Positions 584 through 20,915 of a stretch of 22,268 bases of DNA are shown here, piece by piece. Every line of letters starts with the position of its first letter. The first letter of the stretch is position 1. The DNA comes from a virus. The stretch lies in the IMG/VR virus record IMGVR_UViG_3300049783_000990, positions 1-22,268 of that record; one strand, given 5' to 3'. A program made the position numbers and the translations under genes. The notes under the pieces are model-generated. The model saw only the letters and a list, made by a program, of their open reading frames with translations, was not told the origin of the DNA and ran no database searches.

Positions 584-836
584 TAAATTTCCTTGGTTTA
601 GCTAAAAAGAATGCATATATTCCCAGTGGTAACCAAAAGTGTAAAAAAACAAGCATCGCTAACATTTGTGCTATGGTGTTATTATGTTTTAATATCTTAT
701 CAACTACTGTCATAATATCCGAATATGATGGGTGTTCTGGGTGGTTAGACATGTATATTGCCGCACCAACTACCATAATCGCCGCAATACCACCCAACAA
801 CATATTAATAACATACAGTATCATAATGGCACTCAT
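573..836 (-). CDS. Small integral membrane protein, 87 aa
   Basis: This is a small hydrophobic protein with a strongly non-polar N-terminal segment (about residues 3-29, rich in Ile, Leu, Ala, Gly and Met), a polar middle (NHPEHPSYSD and following, 31-55) and a second hydrophobic block (about 56-78) that ends in the basic AKPRKFNDV. Two membrane helices are the simplest reading. The start overlaps the nadV stop as ATGA, so it is translationally coupled to the nicotinamide phosphoribosyltransferase. It could be a holin-like protein or an accessory to the NAD module; nothing in the sequence decides between these. Function unknown. Confidence 0.7.
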   Translation of the reverse strand: MSAIMILYVINMLLGGIAAIMVVGAAIYMSNHPEHPSYSDIMTVVDKILKHNNTIAQMLAMLVFLHFWLPLGIYAFFLAKPRKFNDV

Positions 837-2524
837 GAGTAATTATCAAAAGCTACTACTGCACGAATCTCAGCTAGTGTGGTTGTTCTGAGCATGACAC
901 CATCTTTGAACACAGTCTCTAAGAGACCACCCTTTTCTTGCTCACGAGTCTGCTCATCCAACATATACAGCTTACCATCATCATCGCAGTGAACACTCAG
1001 CAAACCTTTAGCAGATTTCTTGCTACGGTCAGTCTTTGGGTCTTTGAAGATTGGTACGTCAACACCATTCTTTAGAACGTTAGTTGCTTTCACCGCACTA
1101 CCGTGAGTGTCACGAGTGACCCCTTGGAAAGAGTAAGAACCAACACCAAGCACGATGCTAGGAACAAACCCTTTAGCGATTAGCTTGTCGAGAATCTCAC
1201 GCTGACGACCCAATGTGATAGCATCACCGTAGATTGCACCGATGTGACTGTCAAGCATCTTGTACCCTTCATAAGTAACAGTGCCACCGAACGTATCCCA
1301 CAAACATTCAATCAAACCTTTCTCTTCTGGTGAAAACTCACACGGACCAGACTTTACATTACACCAATCCTCAGCGTAGTAAAATTGTTTATCGTGTCTG
1401 TTCCATTCAATATCAAATTTTACAAAAGAAGGTTCACCTTGGATTAAACACTTACGAGACACCTCATATTCTCCACCATCACCGTGTGGTGTCTGATCTA
1501 GTACTTCGTCATAAAAATACTTCACAGCCTCTCTCAGACTACCAAAATCTAATGGACTTGCAGTACCACAGATCATATCAACAGGGTCACCACTGTCAGG
1601 ACGAACCACAACTTGACCATCACGCGCCATGATCTTATCTTTCATAGCAGGTAGCAGCACAGTGACGAATTCCCAGAAGTCCCATGTGTCAGCAACTACT
1701 GACAGGATACCTTTTTCTGCTGGGTATTCCATCAGGTAGTCAAGGAATGCTTCTTCTCCTTCTTCCATCCACGAGCAAGTAACGCTGTGCTCTGTGGCAT
1801 TAACAGATGCACCAACCAACTCAGTGTCAACATCAGCACCGTAGTATTTCTCTGCAAACAATACAGCAGGAATAGTATCAGTACCTGCAAACCCACTAGT
1901 CAGGTGCGCAAAGCCACTCATCGCAGCAGTGTGACGACTTGTCATTCCGCGCATAGAGAAGTCATGACACATGAACGGTAAGATTTCCATCGGACCACCA
2001 GTCTTGACAAACGCTTCTTTGAATGCTTTGAAGTACGCTGTAGATGTAGTTGATGTGGTTTGCATCATCCAGTTCTCACAACTAAACACAGTCTCAATCA
2101 TATTCGGCAACCACTGGAACCCCGGCAACGTATTGCGGAAGGTGATGGGTGCTACTTGGTAAGGAACAGCAGTACCTTCAGTAAGTGCTTTGATCTCTAG
2201 CGGTAAGTAGCCCAGTTCATGTAAGTCAATTAAGTACTGCACATTAACAGGGTAACCTAACATAGCTGACAGGATACGCTTGTGACGACCGACAGCAACG
2301 TCCAATGGTAGACTGAAGAAGCTTTCTTTCCACTCTTCAATCAGGTAATCCATAATGAAGTACTGCAGACCCACGAAGTTGACTGTATCGTTATCCTCGA
2401 TGTTGCTCCACTTACCACTGCGGCTTGTGAAGTTACTATACACCTCAGTAACATCTGGGTGGTAAGCGTGTACGTGGAACTCTTTATAAACGTCTTTCTG
2501 CATACTTGCTGCGCTAATTGTCAT
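833..2524 (-). CDS. nadV: Nicotinamide phosphoribosyltransferase (Nampt/NadV family)
   Basis: Family reaction: nicotinamide plus PRPP gives NMN, a step of NAD+ salvage in the cytoplasm. At 563 aa it is longer than the usual roughly 490. The conserved core is intact: YSNFTSRS (29-36), HDFSMRG (187-193, the nicotinamide-stacking Phe and phosphate-binding Arg), GTDT (214-217), ATEHSV (243-248, with His246 at the place of the phosphorylated catalytic His of human NAMPT) and VVRPDSGDP (306-314). The start overlaps the stop of the Prs-like gene as TAATG behind GGAGATAG, so the two are coupled. An important alternative is that phage NARP1 uses a Nampt-like enzyme (Namat) that joins nicotinamide to ADP-ribose pyrophosphate and makes NAD+ directly. 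Sequence inspection cannot separate the two activities. Confidence 0.93.
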   Translation of the reverse strand: MTISAASMQKDVYKEFHVHAYHPDVTEVYSNFTSRSGKWSNIEDNDTVNFVGLQYFIMDYLIEEWKESFFSLPLDVAVGRHKRILSAMLGYPVNVQYLIDLHELGYLPLEIKALTEGTAVPYQVAPITFRNTLPGFQWLPNMIETVFSCENWMMQTTSTTSTAYFKAFKEAFVKTGGPMEILPFMCHDFSMRGMTSRHTAAMSGFAHLTSGFAGTDTIPAVLFAEKYYGADVDTELVGASVNATEHSVTCSWMEEGEEAFLDYLMEYPAEKGILSVVADTWDFWEFVTVLLPAMKDKIMARDGQVVVRPDSGDPVDMICGTASPLDFGSLREAVKYFYDEVLDQTPHGDGGEYEVSRKCLIQGEPSFVKFDIEWNRHDKQFYYAEDWCNVKSGPCEFSPEEKGLIECLWDTFGGTVTYEGYKMLDSHIGAIYGDAITLGRQREILDKLIAKGFVPSIVLGVGSYSFQGVTRDTHGSAVKATNVLKNGVDVPIFKDPKTDRSKKSAKGLLSVHCDDDGKLYMLDEQTREQEKGGLLETVFKDGVMLRTTTLAEIRAVVAFDNYS

Positions 2525-3363
2525 TATACTATCTCCATGTTGTGGTTTGTTTCATAAATTGTGTTTGCAGACATTATCTTTGTAATACCTGCCTCATATA
2601 GTGGTGCTAAGCCCTTGGAAAATATTCCGTGGGTTACATATAATTGTACAGTATGTGCACCTGCATTGTAAAGCTCTTTCGTTAACCCTATGAATGTACC
2701 GCCACCGTCACATATATCATCGACGATAACTAGGTCGGCATCCACTACATCATTCAATACCCTAAAGCCAGATAATAACCCTGTTTCTAAATTTCTAGTT
2801 TTAAGACATTGTATAAACTCAGTTCCAAACTTCTCTATTTTCTTTGTGCTGCCTGCATCGGGTGCAACCACAGTTAGTACACCTGATTCTATATCAGATA
2901 GCAGTTGTGTCCCTTTGAGTATATCTCTACAACCTAGGTTAGTAACATTATCGAGTAACGCTGTGGCTACATCACTGTGGTTGTCTAACGTTTCAACTGA
3001 ATGAAACCCAGCGGAGTTTATAAGATTTACCACTACTTTTAAACCAAATGCCTCACCCGAATTACATACCCTATCTTGTCGGCTGTATGGCATGTAATGT
3101 AGTTCTAGTTTAACTGGGTTATTAGATACACGATCTAATGCATCCTTTATTAATAAACAACCTATGATCCCATCACTATCTCGGACCTTAACTTCCAACA
3201 CGTGTAATTCTGGAATCGGAGTCGGTAAATAAATGTTTGCAAGTGCCGCTACCATATCAAATTCCCTGTAGCCAAGGTTCTCAGGTATGCGTATGTTTAG
3301 TTCTCCACCGGGAAATTTAGATACCTCTAATAAAGTTCCGTTTAAAATAAATTCACTTTTCAT
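2524..3363 (-). CDS. prs: Ribose-phosphate pyrophosphokinase-like protein (Prs or NARP1 Adps type)
   Basis: The Prs family transfers pyrophosphate from ATP to ribose 5-phosphate, making PRPP, the co-substrate of NadV. At 279 aa it is shorter than housekeeping Prs (about 315). Visible motifs are FPGGELNIRI (17-26), YMPYSRQDR (90-98, ATP flexible loop), DNHS (127-130, where DLHS is usual), VVAPDAGSTKK (165-175) and the PRPP-binding signature VIVDDICDGGGTF (212-224). It has an AAGGATTAACA ribosome binding site, sits 2 nt after the glycosyltransferase stop and overlaps nadV by 1 nt. In NARP1 phages a Prs-like enzyme instead pyrophosphorylates ADP-ribose; the pairing here is compatible with either role. 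Family assignment is secure, substrate is not. Confidence 0.9.
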   Translation of the reverse strand: MKSEFILNGTLLEVSKFPGGELNIRIPENLGYREFDMVAALANIYLPTPIPELHVLEVKVRDSDGIIGCLLIKDALDRVSNNPVKLELHYMPYSRQDRVCNSGEAFGLKVVVNLINSAGFHSVETLDNHSDVATALLDNVTNLGCRDILKGTQLLSDIESGVLTVVAPDAGSTKKIEKFGTEFIQCLKTRNLETGLLSGFRVLNDVVDADLVIVDDICDGGGTFIGLTKELYNAGAHTVQLYVTHGIFSKGLAPLYEAGITKIMSANTIYETNHNMEIV

Positions 3364-4737: not shown

Positions 4738-5679
4738 TTAATCGCCTCGGTGGGTGAGGACGTGGGTGTTCCGGTTTATTTTTGGGTCATCAACACCACC
4801 GTGGTCGCCTCGAATCAACTTATCTAATGTCGCTATTGCATCTTCGAAATCATTACCAAATAACCTGACAGAAATTATCAATTCCTTTAAGTGTGCAACT
4901 GAATAACCTCCCGTCCTAGTGACCCACTCATCAATATTATCAACTGAATCACCTGATCTGCTGAGGACTTCTTCAATATACGCTTTGCGTGCTTCTGCAC
5001 CCGGCATACCAACATATTTTACCAAATCGAATCGACTTGGCCTGTTCGTTAATCGTGTGTCTAGGTTTTCAATATAGTTGGTTGTGGCAATAAACACAAT
5101 ATTATGTACTTGATATTCCCCGTCCAATAGATGTGTCAGCTTCTCATTATTTTCACTACCACTCTCAAGTATAATATCAATATCTTCTAAGACAACAATG
5201 ATGGGTCTTGTTGGCTCTATAGTACGTACTACCCCAAGTGCATTTGCGAGAACCGAAGGTGAGTCCGAATATATCACAATGCCGCCTTTAGCGATTAAAC
5301 TTTTGGCCGCAAGTTGTAATGTTGTTGTTTTGCCGCTACCGGGAGGTCCATACATAAGGATGCCCCGCTTCCAGATATACCCAAACTGTTTAAATCTATC
5401 TTCCATAGTCCAAAACTTATCAACATATTGAACCAATTCCTCTGCCACTGTATCATGAAGATTGATCATTGTGTCAAATGCGGTGTTATGATTTAAGAAG
5501 TACAGCCCACGCATAATGTCAACACCAATGGTATATTCTCCGGGTGGTAAACTTTCTCTAACATTCTGGACATCTGATGGGAAATAACTTTTATTATCAC
5601 CACTCACCCATACTGCTGAGTTTTTGTACATCCCGCCCTTAACACCTGTATCTAGGTCATCATCATCGTAATACGTCAT
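4738..5679 (-). CDS. AAA+ ATPase (BCS1-like)
   Basis: This 313-aa protein has an N-terminal region of about 100 aa without a recognisable fold, then a single AAA+ module: Walker A GPPGSGKTT (111-119), Walker B IIVVLEDID (160-168), sensor-1 IATTN (197-201) and RPSRFD (213-218, the arginine region). The order and the GYSVAHLKELI stretch near residue 260 resemble BCS1/FtsH-type AAA ATPases, which remodel or unfold proteins. The N-terminus is acidic (YYDDDDLD). It is the first gene after a strong promoter and has an AAGGA ribosome binding site. No protease or zinc-binding domain is fused. Its partner is unknown; linkage to sugar-transfer and NAD genes is unusual. Confidence 0.85.
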   Translation of the reverse strand: MTYYDDDDLDTGVKGGMYKNSAVWVSGDNKSYFPSDVQNVRESLPPGEYTIGVDIMRGLYFLNHNTAFDTMINLHDTVAEELVQYVDKFWTMEDRFKQFGYIWKRGILMYGPPGSGKTTTLQLAAKSLIAKGGIVIYSDSPSVLANALGVVRTIEPTRPIIVVLEDIDIILESGSENNEKLTHLLDGEYQVHNIVFIATTNYIENLDTRLTNRPSRFDLVKYVGMPGAEARKAYIEEVLSRSGDSVDNIDEWVTRTGGYSVAHLKELIISVRLFGNDFEDAIATLDKLIRGDHGGVDDPKINRNTHVLTHRGD

Positions 5680-5742: not shown

Positions 5743-6483
5743 ATGAAATTTATTAATGAGATAGCAAACAATTGGGAAGTAACATCTATTGTTGCTGAAA
5801 TGGATTCGGTACTTAAGCGGTACTCCAGAATAGTACGACTAACTGCACTACATGAAGGGCAACTAGATACAATCAGTGATGATGTTATTAGTGCTGTAAC
5901 CGAGATACAGAACAGGATAAATGTTATCAGTAAGGCAAGAGACTCGGTTGATGGTATGGCACCAGATGACCAATATAAGTTGGCACGGAATAAAAAGTTT
6001 ATCATGCTTGCGCTCAAACGTGTTAATGGTAGAATGGATCAATTTCAAGAGTTGACCAAAAGTGAGTTGGGTGTTACAGGTGATGAAACACTATCACGCC
6101 CTACTATGGTTGAACCTGATGCAGTTGAACCTGATGCAGTTGAACCTGATGCAGTTGAACCTGACAGTGATGCTGGTGCAGTTGAACCTGATGCAGTTGA
6201 ACCTGACAGTGATGCTGACAGTGATGTTGAACCAGTTGATATCGATGTGTATGGTAGACAGGCACCTTACCTATTAAATAAAGCTGCTGCTGGAACTTTA
6301 GAGGTGTACTCTGATACGTTTGATAAGTACCTAGATACTTTTGAAAACTTAGTCAGTGCTAAACTCTTAACACCATATGGTAAAATAACACCAGTTGGTA
6401 AAGCTTCACTTGCTGCTAGAAGTCCAGCTAAGAAAGGATCAATGTCATCATCTGCGCTCAGTGACTTGCTAAATATGGACTAA
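5743..6483 (+). CDS. Late protein with VEPDA repeats and winged-helix-like C-terminus
   Basis: A 246-aa protein of unknown function with an AGGAG ribosome binding site and a late promoter. Residues 1-120 are mostly helical. MKFINEIANN at the start contains I-N-E, resembling a gp21-cleaved head-targeting peptide. Residues 123-166 are a Val-Glu-Pro-Asp-Ala repeat, acidic and probably extended. The C-terminal part (about 170-230) ends in LVSAKLLTPYGKITPVGKAS, which looks like the recognition helix and wing of a winged-helix domain. The next gene has a similar module, so the two may be paralogous. Late expression suggests a virion or assembly protein rather than an early regulator. No homologous family recognised. 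Confidence 0.8.
   Translation: MKFINEIANNWEVTSIVAEMDSVLKRYSRIVRLTALHEGQLDTISDDVISAVTEIQNRINVISKARDSVDGMAPDDQYKLARNKKFIMLALKRVNGRMDQFQELTKSELGVTGDETLSRPTMVEPDAVEPDAVEPDAVEPDSDAGAVEPDAVEPDSDADSDVEPVDIDVYGRQAPYLLNKAAAGTLEVYSDTFDKYLDTFENLVSAKLLTPYGKITPVGKASLAARSPAKKGSMSSSALSDLLNMD
6109..6240 (+). repeat. 15-bp tandem coding repeat (VEPDA)
   Basis: The unit GTTGAACCTGATGCA repeats exactly at 6109, 6124 and 6139. Two longer units (6154-6180 and 6196-6225) carry a GACAGTGATGCT insertion, separated by another 15-bp unit at 6181. A degenerate unit closes the array at 6226-6240. The repeats are identical at the DNA level, not only in protein, which implies recent slippage or unequal recombination and likely copy-number variation between relatives. 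Confidence 0.9.
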
Positions 6484-6505
6484 GTGAAATTATTTTTAAT
6501 CTATG

Positions 6506-6534
6506 TTGACATTAGAGCAAGTACGATTTACAAT
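6506..6534 (+). promoter_or_regulatory. Sigma70-type promoter before the acidic winged-helix-like gene
   Basis: TTGACA (6506-6511), a 17-nt spacer and TACAAT (6529-6534) form a near-consensus promoter in the 77-nt gap after the VEPDA-repeat gene. The predicted transcript start near 6541 lies upstream of the TTG start chosen at 6561 but downstream of the alternative TTG at 6534, which supports the shorter gene. Confidence 0.6.
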
Positions 6535-6560
6535 TGGCTTATCTTATTCGGAGAACTATA

Positions 6561-6956
6561 TTGAAAATAGATAATGATAATAATGACATGACGACAATGA
6601 TTGATGGTAAATTGGACTTTAACATATTAACTTCTATGCATATTGGTGCATTGCGTAACATAGATCGTGGTAATTTTGATGAATATTCGGCATCAGATAG
6701 GATGATGAATACCGTATATGAGCTTGAGGGGTTTGGGTTAGTTGATAAACTATTTAACCTTACTCCCACCGGGGGAATCGCATTAGATATATCTTTTAAG
6801 GTTGGTGGTGCTTCTGAAAAGAGAAGAGCAGCCGAAATGTCCAATGTAATCCTTGAGTTGGACTTTGACTATAATAATATTAATCGGGATGATGATGATG
6901 ATGATGATGGGGATGATGGTGCCATGCCAGATTATCGACTAGGTGGTTATCGTTAA
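6561..6956 (+). CDS. Acidic protein with winged-helix-like module, 131 aa
   Basis: I do not recognise a family. The start chosen is TTG at 6561, 7 nt after GGAG; an in-frame TTG at 6534 would extend it by 9 residues but overlaps the -10 box. The middle of the protein reads like the C-terminal module of the preceding gene: a helical stretch with NFDEYSASDRMM, then LEGFGLVDKLFNLTPTGGIA, then ALDI, fitting a helix and wing. The tail contains DDDDDDDGDDG, encoded by a run of GAT codons at about 6889-6910. Acidic tails of this sort are common on DNA mimics and chaperone-like proteins, but nothing proves that here. It ends directly before a strong terminator. Confidence 0.7.
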   Translation: MKIDNDNNDMTTMIDGKLDFNILTSMHIGALRNIDRGNFDEYSASDRMMNTVYELEGFGLVDKLFNLTPTGGIALDISFKVGGASEKRRAAEMSNVILELDFDYNNINRDDDDDDDGDDGAMPDYRLGGYR

Positions 6957-6958
6957 AT

Positions 6959-6987
6959 AAAAAAGGGGGCTTAGCCCCCTTTTTTAT
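6959..6987. terminator. Bidirectional rho-independent terminator
   Basis: GGGGGC and GCCCCC form a six-pair GC stem around a 3-nt loop, flanked by an A run on the left and a T run on the right, so it works in both directions. It lies between the convergent ends of the plus-strand acidic gene (6956) and the minus-strand gp21 gene (6987), and separates the early/accessory region from the head genes. Confidence 0.93.
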
Positions 6988-7619
6988 TATAGTATCTTAC
7001 TAAAGAATTTAAGTATTTCTTTTTTCATATACTCTTGGGCTTTCGGGTCATGTTGTACCGCCTCAGCTAAGGTCAAAACTTTACGACCCTTTGCGTCTTG
7101 CTGCAATGACTCATATAACGGATCAGGCATTGCACCGGGGGCAGAAGGAGTAACTACCAAATCACATGTAACAAAGTTAAAACCATTTACATCACCATCA
7201 CTTCCAACATCACCAGTACCTCTACTAGAAACACCATACCGTGCACCACTTTCTGCTAGGATCTGTGCTATAAGGCCCATAGGCGTATCTAATAGCTCAG
7301 CTTTACCCATGGCATTAGCACCATCCATATACAATTCCTTGATTACATGAGATATTCTATCCATGTTAATAGTCAATGTTTGTGGATGATCTAGTTCACC
7401 AAATATACCACCGTGATCAGATATAATGGTGGCTGCATTATTTACGGCCTTGCTGATCTCATTCATCGGGTAATTTCTACCGTTTCTGTTTTTAATATCA
7501 GCCTGCATGTAGATACCTTTAAGATAGAATTTCTTCTTACCCTTCTTATCAGTAACTGCTTCAGTTATAATATTACCTTCATTCGGTTGAAGGGTTTCAA
7601 TTAATAGACCGGTTTTCAT
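6987..7619 (-). CDS. 21: Prohead core protease (T4 gp21-like)
   Basis: This serine protease cleaves scaffold and capsid precursors inside the prohead, in T4 after [L/I]-x-E. At 210 aa it is close to T4 gp21 (212 aa). Visible family features are YMQADIKNRNGRNYP (37-51), FGELDHPQ (73-80, with candidate catalytic His78) and YGVSSRGTG (128-136, with the candidate nucleophilic Ser). CDLVVTPSAPGA lies near residue 160. The N-terminus MKTGLLIE holds an L-I-E site, a possible autoprocessing point. It has an AAAGGTGG ribosome binding site and is the last gene of the head operon, ending in the bidirectional terminator. Confidence 0.92.
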   Translation of the reverse strand: MKTGLLIETLQPNEGNIITEAVTDKKGKKKFYLKGIYMQADIKNRNGRNYPMNEISKAVNNAATIISDHGGIFGELDHPQTLTINMDRISHVIKELYMDGANAMGKAELLDTPMGLIAQILAESGARYGVSSRGTGDVGSDGDVNGFNFVTCDLVVTPSAPGAMPDPLYESLQQDAKGRKVLTLAEAVQHDPKAQEYMKKEILKFFSKIL

Positions 7620-7629
7620 AATACCACCT

Positions 7630-8154
7630 TTATTTTTTGTCAGATTTTTTAGACTTGTCAGACTTGTTAGACTTGTCTTCCTTCTCGTCTACTTCACAGT
7701 CATCAACACCATCAGCTTCTTCTTTAGCTTCCGGTACGCACTTATTTACACGTTTGCCTTTATTTTTACCTGTGCCAGCCTGTGTGCCGTCTTTTTTGTA
7801 ACCATCCCAACACATTTCACCAGTGGACTCATCTATATTAAACCTGTCAGATAAGAAGGCGTAAAGTTGTTCAATGTCTTCGAATTCTTTAGAGAATTTT
7901 CCATCATCTGATACAAAATTAATACCAGAGTCCATATCACGGGCGTCAGATTTTATTTCTCCAACTTTCTTACCATTGATATTGACATCATCACCGCGTA
8001 GCTGGATACTACTATCACCGGTAAACTCTAATGCCATCTTAGTCTTTTCACTAATAAAGCTTTTAATATTGACACTTTCTTCGTCAGCATCCCCAGATGC
8101 AACAGCATCTACGAAAAGCGCCAATGATTCATATAATTTTTTCTTATCAGACAT
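7630..8154 (-). CDS. Putative prohead scaffold/core protein, 174 aa
   Basis: Lies directly upstream of gp21 in a head operon, a position held by core proteins in T4-like phages. It begins MSDKKKLYESL, containing L-Y-E, a potential gp21 site. The centre holds a small polar domain (VSDDGKFSKEFEDIEQLYAF and surroundings, to about residue 110). CWDGYKKDGTQAGTGKNKG follows, with KRVNKCV shortly after; I recall a similar Cys-Trp-x-Gly-Tyr...Cys-Val motif in other phage proteins without known function. The C-terminus is low-complexity Asp/Lys/Ser. The composition fits a disordered, proteolysed scaffold, but the role is inferred from place and composition only. Confidence 0.65.
   Translation of the reverse strand: MSDKKKLYESLALFVDAVASGDADEESVNIKSFISEKTKMALEFTGDSSIQLRGDDVNINGKKVGEIKSDARDMDSGINFVSDDGKFSKEFEDIEQLYAFLSDRFNIDESTGEMCWDGYKKDGTQAGTGKNKGKRVNKCVPEAKEEADGVDDCEVDEKEDKSNKSDKSKKSDKK
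7632..7677 (-). repeat. Degenerate coding repeat (Ser-Asp-Lys/Lys-Ser)
   Basis: The last codons of the 174-aa protein repeat a 9-12-nt unit around GACAAGTCT (read on the minus strand), encoding DKSNKSDKSKKSDKK. It makes a highly charged tail. Confidence 0.6.
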
Positions 8155-8170
8155 TACTAATTCTCCTTAG

Positions 8171-8413
8171 TTAATCGTTCGCTGCTACTGAAAGTTCCAT
8201 CCATTGACGGAATTTACGTGGGTTCAAGTATTCTTCACCATCATCACGTTCCAACTTTTCACAGTCTCGTTTTCGTTTTTGTGCCTTTCTGCTCTTACGA
8301 GTAGGGGCATCAACCTTTGTTAATTCATCATCTTCTTTATCTAGTACATTAGTAAATGGATCAAAATAATTATATTTTTCTGCTAAGTATGATTTAAATG
8401 ATTGTGTTTTCAT
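8171..8413 (-). CDS. Small basic head protein with capsid-targeting-like N-terminus, 80 aa
   Basis: Begins MKTQSFKSYLAEK, closely resembling the capsid-targeting sequence of T4 internal proteins (MKTYQEFIAEA in IPIII) and ending in the gp21-type site L-A-E. The remainder is highly charged, with the basic run RKSRKAQKRKRD (about 39-50) and an acidic/hydrophobic end. This is compatible with a small DNA-binding internal head protein or core component. The start overlaps the upstream gene's stop as ATGA, and a GGTGGTGG stretch can serve as ribosome binding site. Function inferred from the N-terminus and location; no family recognised for the body. Confidence 0.65.
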   Translation of the reverse strand: MKTQSFKSYLAEKYNYFDPFTNVLDKEDDELTKVDAPTRKSRKAQKRKRDCEKLERDDGEEYLNPRKFRQWMELSVAAND

Positions 8414-8592
8414 TCACCACCACCTTCACCAGAAGAGACTTCATCACCAATACCATATGTATCCTTGCGTTTCTTCCTAGGCTTCTTAGAAACCTTAGTT
8501 GAACCACCAGTGTATACATTGGGAATATTACCCCCCGATAGGTTGGTTTTATTACCACGAGATGATATATTTGTTATCTCTTCGAGTTTCAT
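8410..8592 (-). CDS. Small Gly/Lys-rich head-operon protein, 60 aa
   Basis: A 60-aa, apparently disordered protein: MKLEEITNISSRGNK, then a Gly/Asn/Thr-rich middle, a basic patch KKPRKKRK (about 36-43) and an acidic Gly-rich end. It is joined to both neighbours by overlapping codons (TAATG upstream, ATGA downstream), which is the main support that it is real. L-E-E at 3-5 fits the gp21 cleavage rule. Likely a prohead core or head accessory component by location; function unknown. Confidence 0.55.
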   Translation of the reverse strand: MKLEEITNISSRGNKTNLSGGNIPNVYTGGSTKVSKKPRKKRKDTYGIGDEVSSGEGGGE

Positions 8593-8747
8593 TACTCTTC
8601 ACTTTTCTCGGGAGCTTCTGTTAACTCACTGGTTGCACGTGCTGCTTTAGCGGCCATGACCGTATTAGATGCTTCCTGTGCAGCCTCGTGATCACCACGT
8701 GCCAACGCCATTACCATATTCCTAATTGTATCCTTATCTTCACTCAT
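8592..8747 (-). CDS. Prohead core protein, gp67/gp68-like, 51 aa
   Basis: A short gene that fills the gap between the 60-aa and 144-aa genes. The product reads MSEDKDTIRNMVMALARGDH, followed by EAAQEASNTVMAAKAARATS and an acidic end. It is a helical, Ala/Met-rich protein; GDHEAAQEASNTVMAAK follows the GD-x-x-x-A pattern I associate with small gp67/gp68-type prohead core proteins of T4-like phages. In T4 those genes lie between gp20 and gp21, as here. The start overlaps the end of the 144-aa gene by 8 nt and its stop overlaps the next ATG. At 51 aa it is shorter than T4 gp67 (80 aa). Confidence 0.7.
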   Translation of the reverse strand: MSEDKDTIRNMVMALARGDHEAAQEASNTVMAAKAARATSELTEAPEKSEE

Positions 8748-9174
8748 TGAATAATTCCTCCATATTGAGTTTGCCCTTTGTCAGGTCTGTATAAAAACTT
8801 TGTTCTAACTGTTCAACAATTTCTTGTCGTACATCTTCTGGGAACATATCTTCCCAAATCCTAGGTTCCTTACCTATATCCTTGGCATACCTTTTGGCAC
8901 CCTCGGTTACGATACGACCCCATGCTCTCTCTGCTAAGGTTGAATCATATTCACCCTTCTTCCAATGCTTATACAGTGTTCGCTTAATTGTGGGTATTTG
9001 CCCATTAAAGTAAGTGCTCTCACTAATAAATGATGCAAGTTCGTGTGTGATCCCTTCAACATCAAGGCTTTCTTTAATTGATTTCATTTTCTTGAATCCC
9101 CGAAGGTAATTGCCAAAAGATGCATCAACATCCTTATCTGTGCTTTCGGTAATGATATCGTTTAAAAATGACAT
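8740..9174 (-). CDS. Conserved head-operon protein, 144 aa
   Basis: Begins MSFLNDIITESTD, with the gp21-type site I-T-E at 8-10. The body is helical: HWKKGEYDSTLAERAWGRIV (about 70-89), then TEGAKRYAKDIGKEPRIWEDMF, a pattern I recall from uncharacterised proteins next to the portal in T4-like phages. GAGGGAAATTAA gives a good ribosome binding site, and a T4-type late promoter lies 33 nt upstream. It is the first gene of the five small genes leading to gp21. Probably a prohead assembly or head protein; exact role unknown. Confidence 0.75.
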   Translation of the reverse strand: MSFLNDIITESTDKDVDASFGNYLRGFKKMKSIKESLDVEGITHELASFISESTYFNGQIPTIKRTLYKHWKKGEYDSTLAERAWGRIVTEGAKRYAKDIGKEPRIWEDMFPEDVRQEIVEQLEQSFYTDLTKGKLNMEELFNE

Positions 9175-9244: not shown

Positions 9245-10969
9245 TTATTTAGGTGCTGGCTTCTCTTCTGGTGGCGCAACTGCCTCTTCATCTTCACCGG
9301 TTGGGGTGTTACCGTCACCTTCTGGTCCAGCAGGATCATCTGGGTTATCAGCGTCCATATCGTCACCGCCGTCCATATCACCACCACCTTCTTCGCCACC
9401 TGATCCACCAAATGGTGATCCACCGCCCATCCCACCTTCAAACCCACCAGCCTCTGCATCTGCTGGGCGATACAACAATGGTAAGTCTCTATCGTCACCT
9501 GTGCCCTGTAACCCCTTTTCTTTACGTAGCATGTCTTCGTTCATGCGTATCTCATCTTTGGTTAGCCCTGCATATCGTTCAAGTATGAACCTCTTAGACA
9601 TATACTCAATACCTTCAACACTACCAAGGTTAGCAAGCATATCTGCGTCCATGGCCTGTTGTCTGGACTTGAAGTAATCAGATGGTTCTGGTAATGTTAT
9701 TCTGTAAATGGTTGGATCTATCTTTATCTCAGCCTCATACAACCAACGCTTAAATTCAGCATCAAGAACTTCTTCTAGGTATCGCTGTAGTCTTTGTATA
9801 TAGAGTGAGAATTTGATTTCCTGTAGATATGCTATGCCCACACGACCCTCATTACCAATAGCTTGGCCATCCTCAGTAGATGACCCAATATATGATGATG
9901 GTATGCGTAGTGCACGCCACATCTTTCTATAGAAATAATCCAGTTCTGTTAGTTCACCAAGTCCCTGACCACCCGGCAGTGTTTCTACCTTAGAACCCGA
10001 ACCATTTGGTCTAGTTGCAAAATAGAAATCTTCGTTTATACTTTGTGGGTTATATACCGACTCAACCTGTGATTTACCACCGTATCTACTAGGCACTTTC
10101 TTTTGCTTAATCTGATTGCGAAATTTTTCCAATACACCCGGAACTAGGTTGTCTGGGCGATTACCAACATCAATATAAAATACTCGTTTCTCTGGTGCCC
10201 TAGAAATTCTATAAATTAAAATAGAATCTTCTAATAGTTCTTTTTGTTTGAATACCTTATATGCTGGGCGTAATACTGAGATGCCAAACGGTGCCTCTTC
10301 CGACATATCATCTGATATGCAGAACCGGACAATCTTATCCTTATCCAATGGTCGTACATTCTTGTCGCCCATCTCACCAGTCGCCTGTGATTGGAAAGCA
10401 CCAGTGCTACCACCATTATTTGGATCATTATAGTCACCATTAACATACCAACCACGTATGTCAGTTATGTCATCCTCTGAAACAATAGCACCCACAACAT
10501 TCTTGGGGTGTATAAATTTAAAAGGTTTGTTTTTCTTATCATTACGTTCAAAGAAACAATCACCATACTTAATCATATTCCTAGCTACACTGAATAGACG
10601 CCCACCCTGCCAATTATGCACCTTAGTCCAAGTCTTGAGTGCTGCCCGTAATGTTGAAAAATGGTGTGATGGGATGTTTTCTTCTGATCCAGCCTCTATC
10701 ATCACATCCATAGGCAGTCTGGTCTTGGGGTTATTACCTGTCATTTCTTCGGCCATAATATCCAATGCACGGGAAACATCGATATCATTATCCATAATAT
10801 CATATTCTCGATAACGGGTTAGTCGGGTCGTAGATCCTTGGATGATTCGCTGATACCAACCATAGTTGCCATATAGCCCATTTGTGCCAGTAGAGTTCTG
10901 ATTATCAGATACTGACATATTTGGTGACTGGGGTGAAACTACTTTAAAATATGTGGTTAAGCTGCTCAC
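9245..10969 (-). CDS. 20: Portal vertex protein (T4 gp20-like)
   Basis: The portal forms the dodecameric ring at the unique head vertex, starts prohead assembly and is the DNA entry channel. At 574 aa it is slightly longer than T4 gp20 (524). Family features are YREYDIMDNDIDVSRALDI (53-71), the RAPEKRVFYIDVGN motif (257-270) and PGGQGLGELTELDYF near residue 330. The last 65 residues are a low-complexity Gly/Asp then Pro/Glu tail, not typical of T4. The start is GTG (10969), 7 nt after AGGA; an ATG two bases upstream is followed at once by TGA and cannot serve. A late promoter precedes it. Confidence 0.93.
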   Translation of the reverse strand: MSSLTTYFKVVSPQSPNMSVSDNQNSTGTNGLYGNYGWYQRIIQGSTTRLTRYREYDIMDNDIDVSRALDIMAEEMTGNNPKTRLPMDVMIEAGSEENIPSHHFSTLRAALKTWTKVHNWQGGRLFSVARNMIKYGDCFFERNDKKNKPFKFIHPKNVVGAIVSEDDITDIRGWYVNGDYNDPNNGGSTGAFQSQATGEMGDKNVRPLDKDKIVRFCISDDMSEEAPFGISVLRPAYKVFKQKELLEDSILIYRISRAPEKRVFYIDVGNRPDNLVPGVLEKFRNQIKQKKVPSRYGGKSQVESVYNPQSINEDFYFATRPNGSGSKVETLPGGQGLGELTELDYFYRKMWRALRIPSSYIGSSTEDGQAIGNEGRVGIAYLQEIKFSLYIQRLQRYLEEVLDAEFKRWLYEAEIKIDPTIYRITLPEPSDYFKSRQQAMDADMLANLGSVEGIEYMSKRFILERYAGLTKDEIRMNEDMLRKEKGLQGTGDDRDLPLLYRPADAEAGGFEGGMGGGSPFGGSGGEEGGGDMDGGDDMDADNPDDPAGPEGDGNTPTGEDEEAVAPPEEKPAPK

Positions 10970-20321: not shown

Positions 20322-20915
20322 ATGCGATTAATTGATATTTTATTAGAGAACGACGACTATCGGGGTCAGCATAGGGCACCTACCAGTGATGCACATAATA
20401 CATTAGATGATCTCTCTGATATTTACCCAGACGATATCTATTCATCAGAAGGTGTGCGCTTTTATGGTGACCGGACATCTGCCGATCAAGAATCAATAAA
20501 TGTTATTCATATGGCTAAAGGTAAACCTAATAAATCAGTTACAGTATATCGTGCTGTTCCTTATGAAAAAAGTCCATCTGAACAACTATATGACCTCGAA
20601 ACAAATATGAAAGCATACAAACGTCGAGGTAACGTCCCTAGGTCTGAAACCAATGACCTAACGGGGTCTGAATGGTATAATGATGCATGGGATAGACGTT
20701 CAGAACTTGAAGCTAGGGTTGACGCCAAAGAGGGTAGTGCTGATACTCTAAGTATAAACCCCGGTGACTGGGTTACCACCAGTAGGCGATACGCCAAGTC
20801 ACACGGTGAATCTACATTGCGGGGTAAATATAAAATAGTTTCAAAGAAAGTTAAAGCTAATGAGCTTGCTACTGACGGTGACTCTATACACGAGTGGGGT
20901 TGGAACCCTATTTAA
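20322..20915 (+). CDS. Predicted ADP-ribosyltransferase (R-S-E type), possibly virion-packaged
   Basis: A 197-aa protein fitting the arginine-type ADP-ribosyltransferase pattern: VTVYRAVP (73-80, with Arg77 as NAD+-binding Arg), GDWVTTSRRYAKSHG (148-162, where VTTS takes the place of the S-T-S motif) and DGDSIHEWGW (185-194, with Glu191 as the probable catalytic Glu). Such enzymes move ADP-ribose from NAD+ to a target and release nicotinamide. The first residues, MRLIDILLEND, resemble the start of T4 Alt (MELITELFDED), a packaged ADP-ribosyltransferase, and contain L-L-E, the gp21 cleavage rule. It overlaps the convergent helicase gene by 8 nt. It could instead be a toxin-like domain; the target is unknown. 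Confidence 0.65.
   Translation: MRLIDILLENDDYRGQHRAPTSDAHNTLDDLSDIYPDDIYSSEGVRFYGDRTSADQESINVIHMAKGKPNKSVTVYRAVPYEKSPSEQLYDLETNMKAYKRRGNVPRSETNDLTGSEWYNDAWDRRSELEARVDAKEGSADTLSINPGDWVTTSRRYAKSHGESTLRGKYKIVSKKVKANELATDGDSIHEWGWNPI

What the first reader, a model, noticed from the sequence alone, without database searches (positions are those of the whole stretch)
5743..9174. Shared N-terminal [L/I]-x-E tag on head-operon and late proteins
Seen: six neighbouring proteins have [L/I]-x-E within the first 12 residues: INE (VEPDA protein), ITE (144 aa), LEE (60 aa), LAE (80 aa), LYE (174 aa) and LIE (gp21). The predicted ADP-ribosyltransferase (LLE) makes a seventh. Of about 15 other proteins in the window only Prs (LLE at 11-13) has one there. 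Known: T4 gp21 cuts after [L/I]-x-E, and T4 internal proteins use MKTYQEFIAEA as a capsid-targeting peptide. Inference: a packaging/maturation tag marks the head cargo of this phage, and could be used to find unknown injected proteins across its genome.
Basis: partly seen in the sequence, partly recalled or inferred. Interest (0 to 1): 0.65.

Follow-up and report, generated by a model that had tools for sequence, protein, structure and literature searches.

The report
Capsid-packaging address tag on phage proteins
Several proteins of this T4-like phage begin with a short address label, ending in a cut site for the phage's own head protease, that most likely sends them into the growing virus head; the same label fronts dozens of unrelated enzymes in other viruses, so it can be used to predict what such phages inject into bacteria.

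Summary
Six of eight proteins in 5743-9174, plus the ADP-ribosyltransferase-like protein at 20322, carry [L/I]-x-E in the first 12 residues; only Prs does among the 18 other proteins (Fisher 0.0003). Chance is about 13% per protein, so the bare motif is weak evidence. The window is a fragment of a T4-like phage related to XacN1. N-terminal [LI]xE is in excess across four relatives (z 2.4 to 4.3) but not in five phages without gp21. The informative form is hydrophobic-x-x-hydrophobic-[LI]-x-E, the spacing of T4's capsid-targeting sequence. In the ART family 11 of 12 members from T4-like-headed phages carry a tag, against 1 of 7 standalone members without head markers. Canonical tags precede at least 45 unrelated protein families in viral contigs. 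In a published virion proteome of a T4-like cyanophage, tags fit 5/13 cargo-like virion proteins, 0/36 tail proteins and 3/145 non-virion proteins (p = 8e-5). The best reading is T4-type capsid targeting plus gp21 cleavage, with two classes merged: cargo tags (orf144, orf80, ART) and short maturation sites in core proteins. The mechanism is known; its breadth and predictive use look new. No cleavage has been shown in this phage.

The parts
9145..9153 (-). ITE site (residues 8-10) of orf144 (8740-9174), MSFLNDIITES; full hydrophobic-xx-hydrophobic-[LI]xE pattern
   Evidence: relatives MKQSFLNEII, MKKSFLNEIISEN, MSKSVLNKMIFE
8740..9174 (-). orf144, 144 aa, first gene after the portal; predicted prohead core or internal protein
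   Evidence: position between portal and gp21 in all close relatives; no Pfam or PHROG match
8592..8747 (-). orf51, small protein without the motif; looks like a gp67-type repeat unit, duplicated in relatives L008 and L011
8578..8586 (-). LEE site (residues 3-5) of orf60 (8410-8592); short site, L-x-E at 3-5 kept in the homologues seen
   Evidence: MKLSEL, MKLREI, MKLHEI, MKLNEL, MRLLEY
8378..8386 (-). LAE site (residues 10-12) of orf80 (8171-8413), MKTQSFKSYLAE; closest in the window to T4 MKTYQEFIAEA
   Evidence: Glu12 invariant in 14 homologues; consensus SFKEYLxE
8128..8136 (-). LYE site (residues 7-9) of orf174 (7630-8154), a gp67-like prohead core protein with an acidic/lysine-rich tail
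   Evidence: weak profile match to T4 gp67 residues 2-32, E 0.0008, probability 25%
7596..7604 (-). LIE site (residues 6-8) of gp21; T4 gp21 has LIE ending at residue 9
   Evidence: 21 of 23 non-redundant relatives keep [LI]xE here; PMC9026906
7560..7568 (-). second [LI]xE in gp21 (ITE, residues 18-20), conserved in close relatives
6987..7619 (-). gp21 prohead protease, Pfam Peptidase_S77; the presumed cutter
   Evidence: PF03420 81.8-82.4 bits against cut-off 27; phrog_207 8e-54
5752..5760 (+). INE site (residues 4-6) of the VEPDA-repeat protein (5743-6483)
   Evidence: homologues MNLLNE, MNLLNE, MQLITE in G004, G002, G005
6561..6956 (+). orf122 with likely TTG start; no tag here, though homologues have one (XacN1 MKIQNILSE, RAS14 MKIKTLLE, G002 MQVKHVITE)
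20340..20348 (+). LLE site (residues 7-9) of the ART-like protein, MRLIDILLEND; tag lies outside the folded domain
   Evidence: residues 1-11 pLDDT below 50, rest near 90
20322..20915 (+). ART-superfamily protein, predicted head cargo
9245..10969 (-). portal protein (gp20), Portal_T4
   Evidence: E 2e-85

Best explanation
The motif is the T4-type capsid-targeting and maturation signal in a distant, XacN1-related T4-like phage. Proteins bearing it are drawn into the prohead core through a short amphipathic N-terminal helix, and gp21, encoded in the same cluster, later cuts after the Glu of [L/I]-x-E and releases the mature protein inside the head. Two classes share it. (1) Cargo-type tags with hydrophobic residues at E-6 and E-3 (orf144, orf80, the ART-like protein); the ART-like protein would be injected with the DNA, as T4 Alt is. 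(2) Short sites in core or maturation proteins (gp21 itself, gp67-like orf174, orf60, VEPDA), as in T4 gp21, gp67, gp24 and Alt. Shown here: the sites, their conservation, the presence of gp21, the genome-wide N-terminal excess in relatives, the coupling of tag to T4-like heads in the ART family, and tag enrichment in a published virion proteome of another T4-like phage. Inferred: targeting, cleavage and injection in this phage. Prs LLE is a chance match.
For: Window counts above chance. Orthologues keep the sites. N-terminal [LI]xE excess over column shuffles: G002 38 vs 21, z 4.3; G005 37 vs 23, z 3.8; RAS14 72 vs 52, z 3.5; XacN1 65 vs 51, z 2.4; other motifs mostly null; phages without gp21 show none: SPO1 1.2, A511 -0.3, Twort 0.5, Phabba 0.0, Myrna -1.4. 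Positive control T4: IPII, IPIII, Alt, gp67, gp68, gp21, gp22 and gp24 are all among the carriers. ART family: tag in 11/12 records with gp20, gp21 or gp23, e.g. MKTFKQFITE, MKSFKQFIVEE, MYSFSEFINLAE, directly before the ART domain; mycobacteriophage homologues start at the domain (MSDYRG) (p = 0.0017). Canonical tag MK[TS]FK[QE]F[IL]xE: at least 120 contig stretches with E at the last position, 20 with K (nearly all one family), 13 with D; bodies fall in 45 unrelated clusters; gp21 in 15 of 26 long contigs. S-CREM2 virion proteome (PMC10665884 Table 3): strong tag in SAM hydrolase MKDFDSFLEE, kinase MKRFDAFLTE, NMNAT MKNFSSFLTE, ORF13 MKDLHSFLTE and ORF156: 5/13, against 0/36 tail and 3/145 non-virion, p = 8e-5. 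AlphaFold leaves only residues 1-11 of the window ART disordered.
Against: No virion mass spectrometry or cleavage data exist for this phage. Only 3 of the 7 window proteins have the full targeting pattern. Two cluster genes lack the motif. Orthologue retention is clearly high for G002-G005 (13/24) but not above control motifs for XacN1-RAS14 (15/54) or T4-Vibrio 1.081 (6/28); the pooled figure counts the same head genes repeatedly. In T4 the genome-wide excess is weak (z 2.0) and control motifs deviate too. In gp21 and gp67-like proteins the motif may be kept for structural reasons. ART starts in L191, L169 and L182 were set by reading the frames by eye.
Confidence: 0.78

Rival explanations
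1. Structural conservation only: [LI]xE in gp21, the gp67-like protein and orf60 is part of the folded N-terminus (strand or amphipathic helix) and is not cut; the rest are chance.
For: gp21 LIE and the gp67-like N-terminal helix are conserved with their surroundings across the family; the bare motif is common by chance.
Against: The same N-terminal pattern sits before unrelated domains, is mostly absent in ART homologues of phages without T4-like head genes, E is preferred over K or D, and it fits virion cargo in S-CREM2.
Confidence: 0.12
2. Chance and composition: short Glu- and Leu-rich phage N-termini produce the motif often, and the reader picked a cluster.
For: 13% background per protein; the cluster was chosen post hoc.
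Against: Column-shuffle controls keep position-specific composition and still show excess in four relatives and none in five phages without gp21; conservation in orthologues.
Confidence: 0.05
3. Targeting without cleavage: the amphipathic N-terminus docks proteins on the core, and [LI]xE is only part of the docking helix in this lineage.
For: In T4 IPIII residues 4 and 7 matter for targeting and Asp at 10 still allows targeting without cleavage (PMC9026906); some relatives have WLE, FKE or MAE in place of [LI]xE.
Against: Strong preference for E over D and K in canonical tags; gp21 is encoded in the same cluster.
Confidence: 0.08

Closest known systems
T4 capsid-targeting sequence of IPI, IPII and IPIII (MKTYQEFIAEA) and gp21 cleavage at L/I-x-E
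   Same: N-terminal position, spacing of hydrophobic residues at E-6 and E-3, [LI]-x-E, gp21 (Peptidase_S77) encoded beside the core genes (PMC9026906)
   Different: Core genes are unrelated in sequence or barely similar to T4's; additional small core paralogues; no cleavage data; orf60, VEPDA, gp21 and orf174 have only the short site
T4 Alt, head-packaged ADP-ribosyltransferase (MELITE, N-terminus removed by gp21)
   Same: Predicted ART with an N-terminal [LI]xE tag in a T4-like phage
   Different: Different, compact ART family (phrog_2579) with no detected sequence match to Alt; longer targeting-type tag; activity untested
Propeptides of phiKZ-like giant phages (S/A-x-E, often over 100 residues)
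   Same: N-terminal propeptide cut after Glu by a prohead protease distantly related to gp21
   Different: Here short (5-13 residues) and [LI]xE, i.e. T4-like rather than phiKZ-like (PMC5694885)
Virion-associated enzymes of cyanophage S-CREM2 (SAM hydrolase, kinase, NMNAT)
   Same: Carry MKxFxxFLxE tags and were found in virions by mass spectrometry
   Different: The authors did not describe a shared N-terminus; the cargo differs from the window's

Membership tests
T4-type capsid-targeting sequence (CTS) | Within the first 10-20 residues of the protein | tested here: met
   Glu at residues 5-12 in all seven
T4-type capsid-targeting sequence (CTS) | L/I-x-E cleavage motif | tested here: met
T4-type capsid-targeting sequence (CTS) | Hydrophobic residues at E-6 and E-3 (T4 IPIII residues 4 and 7) | tested here: inconclusive
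   Met by orf144, orf80 and the ART-like protein; not by orf60, VEPDA, orf174 and gp21 (sequences)
T4-type capsid-targeting sequence (CTS) | Phage encodes gp21 (Peptidase_S77) | tested here: met
T4-type capsid-targeting sequence (CTS) | Tagged protein is packaged in the head | not testable with these tools
   Only by analogy: S-CREM2 virion proteome
T4-type capsid-targeting sequence (CTS) | Cut after Glu during maturation | not testable with these tools
   needs semi-tryptic peptides
ADP-ribosyltransferase superfamily (20322-20915) | ART fold | tested here: inconclusive
   Compact homologue L199: nearly all 30 structural matches listed are ART-superfamily chains, best Z 5.0 over 71 residues; Foldseek E not significant; window model weak
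ADP-ribosyltransferase superfamily (20322-20915) | Conserved catalytic Arg and Glu | tested here: inconclusive
   R77 and E191 invariant in 46 sequences; assignment to the active site is inferred
T4 gp67 prohead core family (orf174) | Profile similarity to T4 gp67 | tested here: inconclusive
   hhalign probability 25%, E 0.0008 over 31 columns; same genomic slot between portal and gp21

The most novel reading that the evidence does not exclude
The tag is a general, portable delivery code of gp21-encoding phages: genes for unrelated enzymes (ARTs, SAM lyases, zeta-type kinases, NMNAT, peptidoglycan hydrolases, nucleases) repeatedly acquire a 10-12 residue N-terminus that loads them into the head for injection, so the injected repertoire of T4-like and related jumbo phages can be read from N-termini alone.
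Probability: 0.6. Interest if true: 0.8.

Novelty: new member of a known kind. Interest (0 to 1): 0.62.

Why it matters
Which proteins a phage injects is hard to know without virion proteomics. Within T-even phages internal proteins have been found by their signal sequence, and T4 Ip1-3 turned out to block type IV restriction enzymes (PMC12373910). The evidence here extends the signal to XacN1-type jumbo phages and marine T4-like viruses, and shows it before at least 45 unrelated families, including an ART family that carries the tag almost only in phages with T4-like heads. It gives a cheap, falsifiable predictor of injected effectors and candidate anti-defence enzymes.

Tried and rejected
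Bare [LI]xE as a predictor: rejected as too noisy. Genome-wide test in T4 and Vibrio phage 1.081: weak and not specific. Orthologue retention pooled over many pairs: inflated by repeated head genes; the per-pair version is mixed. Homologues of the VEPDA protein by degenerate scan: none useful; found instead by reciprocal BLAST in relatives. Atu_ph07 virion data: the per-protein list is only in a supplement, not usable. RsoM2USA: too few proteins identified. XacN1 virion enzymes named in the text: the lipase (ORF279) N-terminus has no tag; the full list sits in a figure. Foldseek on the full window ART: dominated by an inserted helical hairpin. Pfam on ten tag carriers of relatives: mostly no match. 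Prs LLE: judged a chance match.
Full report
What the window is. The record is a 22,268-base virus contig encoding a T4-like portal (9245-10969, E 2e-85), the prohead protease gp21 (6987-7619, PF03420, about 82 bits), gp46/47, gp55, a helicase and NAD-salvage enzymes. The nearest annotated phages are Xanthomonas phage XacN1 (portal 55% identical) and Stenotrophomonas phage RAS14 (51%). A 51 kb contig encodes an identical portal and an identical ART-like protein, and contigs of 57-105 kb are 70-78% identical in the portal.

The cluster has eight genes, of which six carry [LI]xE; the 51 aa protein and orf122 do not. From interior positions of the window's own proteins the chance per protein is 13%. 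Cluster against rest gives Fisher 0.002, and 0.0003 when the ART-like protein is added. Because the cluster was chosen post hoc, I rested the case on relatives.

Conservation in relatives. In about 75 loci the genes between portal and gp21 keep the motif at the N-terminus although the sequences diverge. In non-redundant proteins of that interval, 34 of 69 have [LI]xE starting in residues 1-12 against 13-18 of 69 in later windows; gp21 has it in 21 of 23. In orf80 homologues the Glu is the one invariant column, with consensus SFKEYLxE, close to T4's MKTYQEFIAEA. The VEPDA protein keeps it in three homologues. orf122 has lost a tag that its homologues have.

Genome-wide excess. I called genes in four relatives, T4, a KVP40-like Vibrio phage and five phages without detectable gp21, and compared the number of N-termini (first 14 residues) with each motif to a null that shuffles each column among proteins. 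[LI]xE is in excess in G002 (38 vs 21), G005 (37 vs 23), RAS14 (72 vs 52) and XacN1 (65 vs 51); it is not in SPO1, A511, Twort, Phabba or Myrna (gp21 searched). T4 itself, as positive control, lists its known gp21 substrates among the carriers (gp67, gp68, gp21, gp22, gp24, IPII, IPIII, Alt), but also many by-chance carriers. Orthologue retention supports selection in G002-G005 (13/24) but not beyond controls in XacN1-RAS14, so the bare motif alone is not a marker.

The informative pattern. Clear carriers in relatives share hydrophobic-x-x-hydrophobic-[LI]-x-E, e.g. XacN1 MKTSFRQFLAES, MRFVQYLIEAS, MRFTSYLIETH, MKLHDIITEG, with RAS14 orthologues MSFVQFLIEN and MSFKTFLIEG. This is the T4 spacing: residues 4 and 7 of IPIII act in targeting, 8 and 10 in cleavage (PMC9026906). 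In the window orf144, orf80 and the ART-like protein have it; gp21, orf174, orf60 and VEPDA have only the short site, as T4 gp67 (MEGLIE), gp24 (MAKINE) and Alt (MELITE) do.

A natural experiment in the ART family. The protein at 20322 belongs to phrog_2579. Homologues in mycobacteriophages start at the domain itself (MSDYRG), and many others are domains inside long proteins. In 12 records with T4-like gp20, gp21 or gp23, 11 homologues have a short extension with [LI]xE: MRLIDILLEND, MYSFSEFINLAES, MKTFKQFITE, MKSFKQFIVEE, MKSFNQFLKE, MIKLKDILME, MKNFREWLLLRE and others; the exception is MRLNQLWLE. Standalone homologues without such markers have it in 1 of 7 (Fisher 0.0017). Starts in three records were set by eye after reading the frames. 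The AlphaFold model of the window protein has pLDDT near 90 except residues 1-11. That the family is an ART rests on invariant R77 and E191 and on a structural comparison of a compact homologue whose listed matches are nearly all ART-superfamily chains, though at low Z, 5.0 or less.

The canonical tag in viral contigs. The 125 tagged ORFs fall into 45 clusters of unrelated bodies. Pfam matches include ART-PolyVal, zeta toxin, SAM lyase, glucosaminidase, lytic transglycolase and GH19 chitinase, with weaker matches to methyltransferase, GNAT and phospholipase A2-like domains. gp21 is present in 15 of 26 long contigs, which are themselves fragments.

A test against published virion data. Table 3 of PMC10665884 lists 52 virion proteins of the T4-like cyanophage S-CREM2. 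I set the classes by genome position before reading N-termini. The strong pattern occurs in 5 of 13 cargo-like virion proteins (SAM hydrolase, APH/ChoK kinase, NMNAT, ORF13, ORF156), 0 of 36 tail or structural proteins and 3 of 145 non-virion proteins (p = 8e-5; bare motif 7/13 vs 13/145, p = 2e-4). The paper does not mention N-termini. NMNATs of P-SSM2 and S-SM2 begin MKSFSQFLTE and MKSFFQFLSE; S-SM2 is the closest relative of S-SCSM1, whose NMNAT was found in virions (PMC9602691).

Verdict. The window shows a T4-type capsid-targeting and maturation signal in a distant T4-like phage. The kind is known: T-even internal proteins were found by their signal sequence, and Ip1-3 inhibit type IV restriction enzymes (PMC12373910). 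The breadth of cargo and the predictive test appear new in the literature I could search. Cleavage, packaging and injection in this phage are inferred.

Noticed in passing
L448:7704-13331 (S-CREM2) and L388, L458, L459, L461: Cyanophage cargo enzymes share a second small domain right after the tag, roughly LGLxxDGHGxWxDxxGxxVAxTxxGxLxF (NMNAT of P-SSM2, S-SM2, S-B43; Cas9-like ORF12 of S-CREM2; L388). It may be a further packaging or injection module.
   Followed up: partly
L316:4015-4725 and related loci; P-TIM68, S-CREM2: The largest set of canonical-tag proteins includes SAM lyases of T4-like cyanophages (PF23780, E 5e-18), and one is a detected virion protein: a head-delivered SAM-degrading, possibly anti-restriction, enzyme.
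   Followed up: partly
L320:6505-9422: Four tandem genes each start with the same MKTFKQFI tag but have unrelated bodies: an island of tagged cargo.
   Followed up: partly
L008:12202-13603; L011:3192-4023: Close relatives carry two or three tandem copies of the small orf51-type protein (DKIREMVMALSRGDHEAAQ), resembling a gp67-like helix.
   Followed up: no
window 833-3363: NAMPT and Prs overlap as an NAD-salvage pair in a phage that also encodes an NAD-using ART-like protein.
   Followed up: no
window 4738-5679: AAA ATPase next to the head cluster, possibly BCS1-like; a role as head or core translocase has been proposed for BCS1-like proteins of jumbo phages (PMC7824862).
   Followed up: partly
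XacN1 AP018399.1 53927-54754 and its terminal-repeat copy: A 275 aa protein with a textbook tag (MKTSFRQFLAES) matches PHROGs annotated as virion structural protein.
   Followed up: partly
L413-L432: MK[TS]FKQFLNKRVLTVSALAKKHDV proteins resemble the tag but end in Lys and form a single family of mostly 64-91 aa; probably a different protein, not a tag.
   Followed up: no
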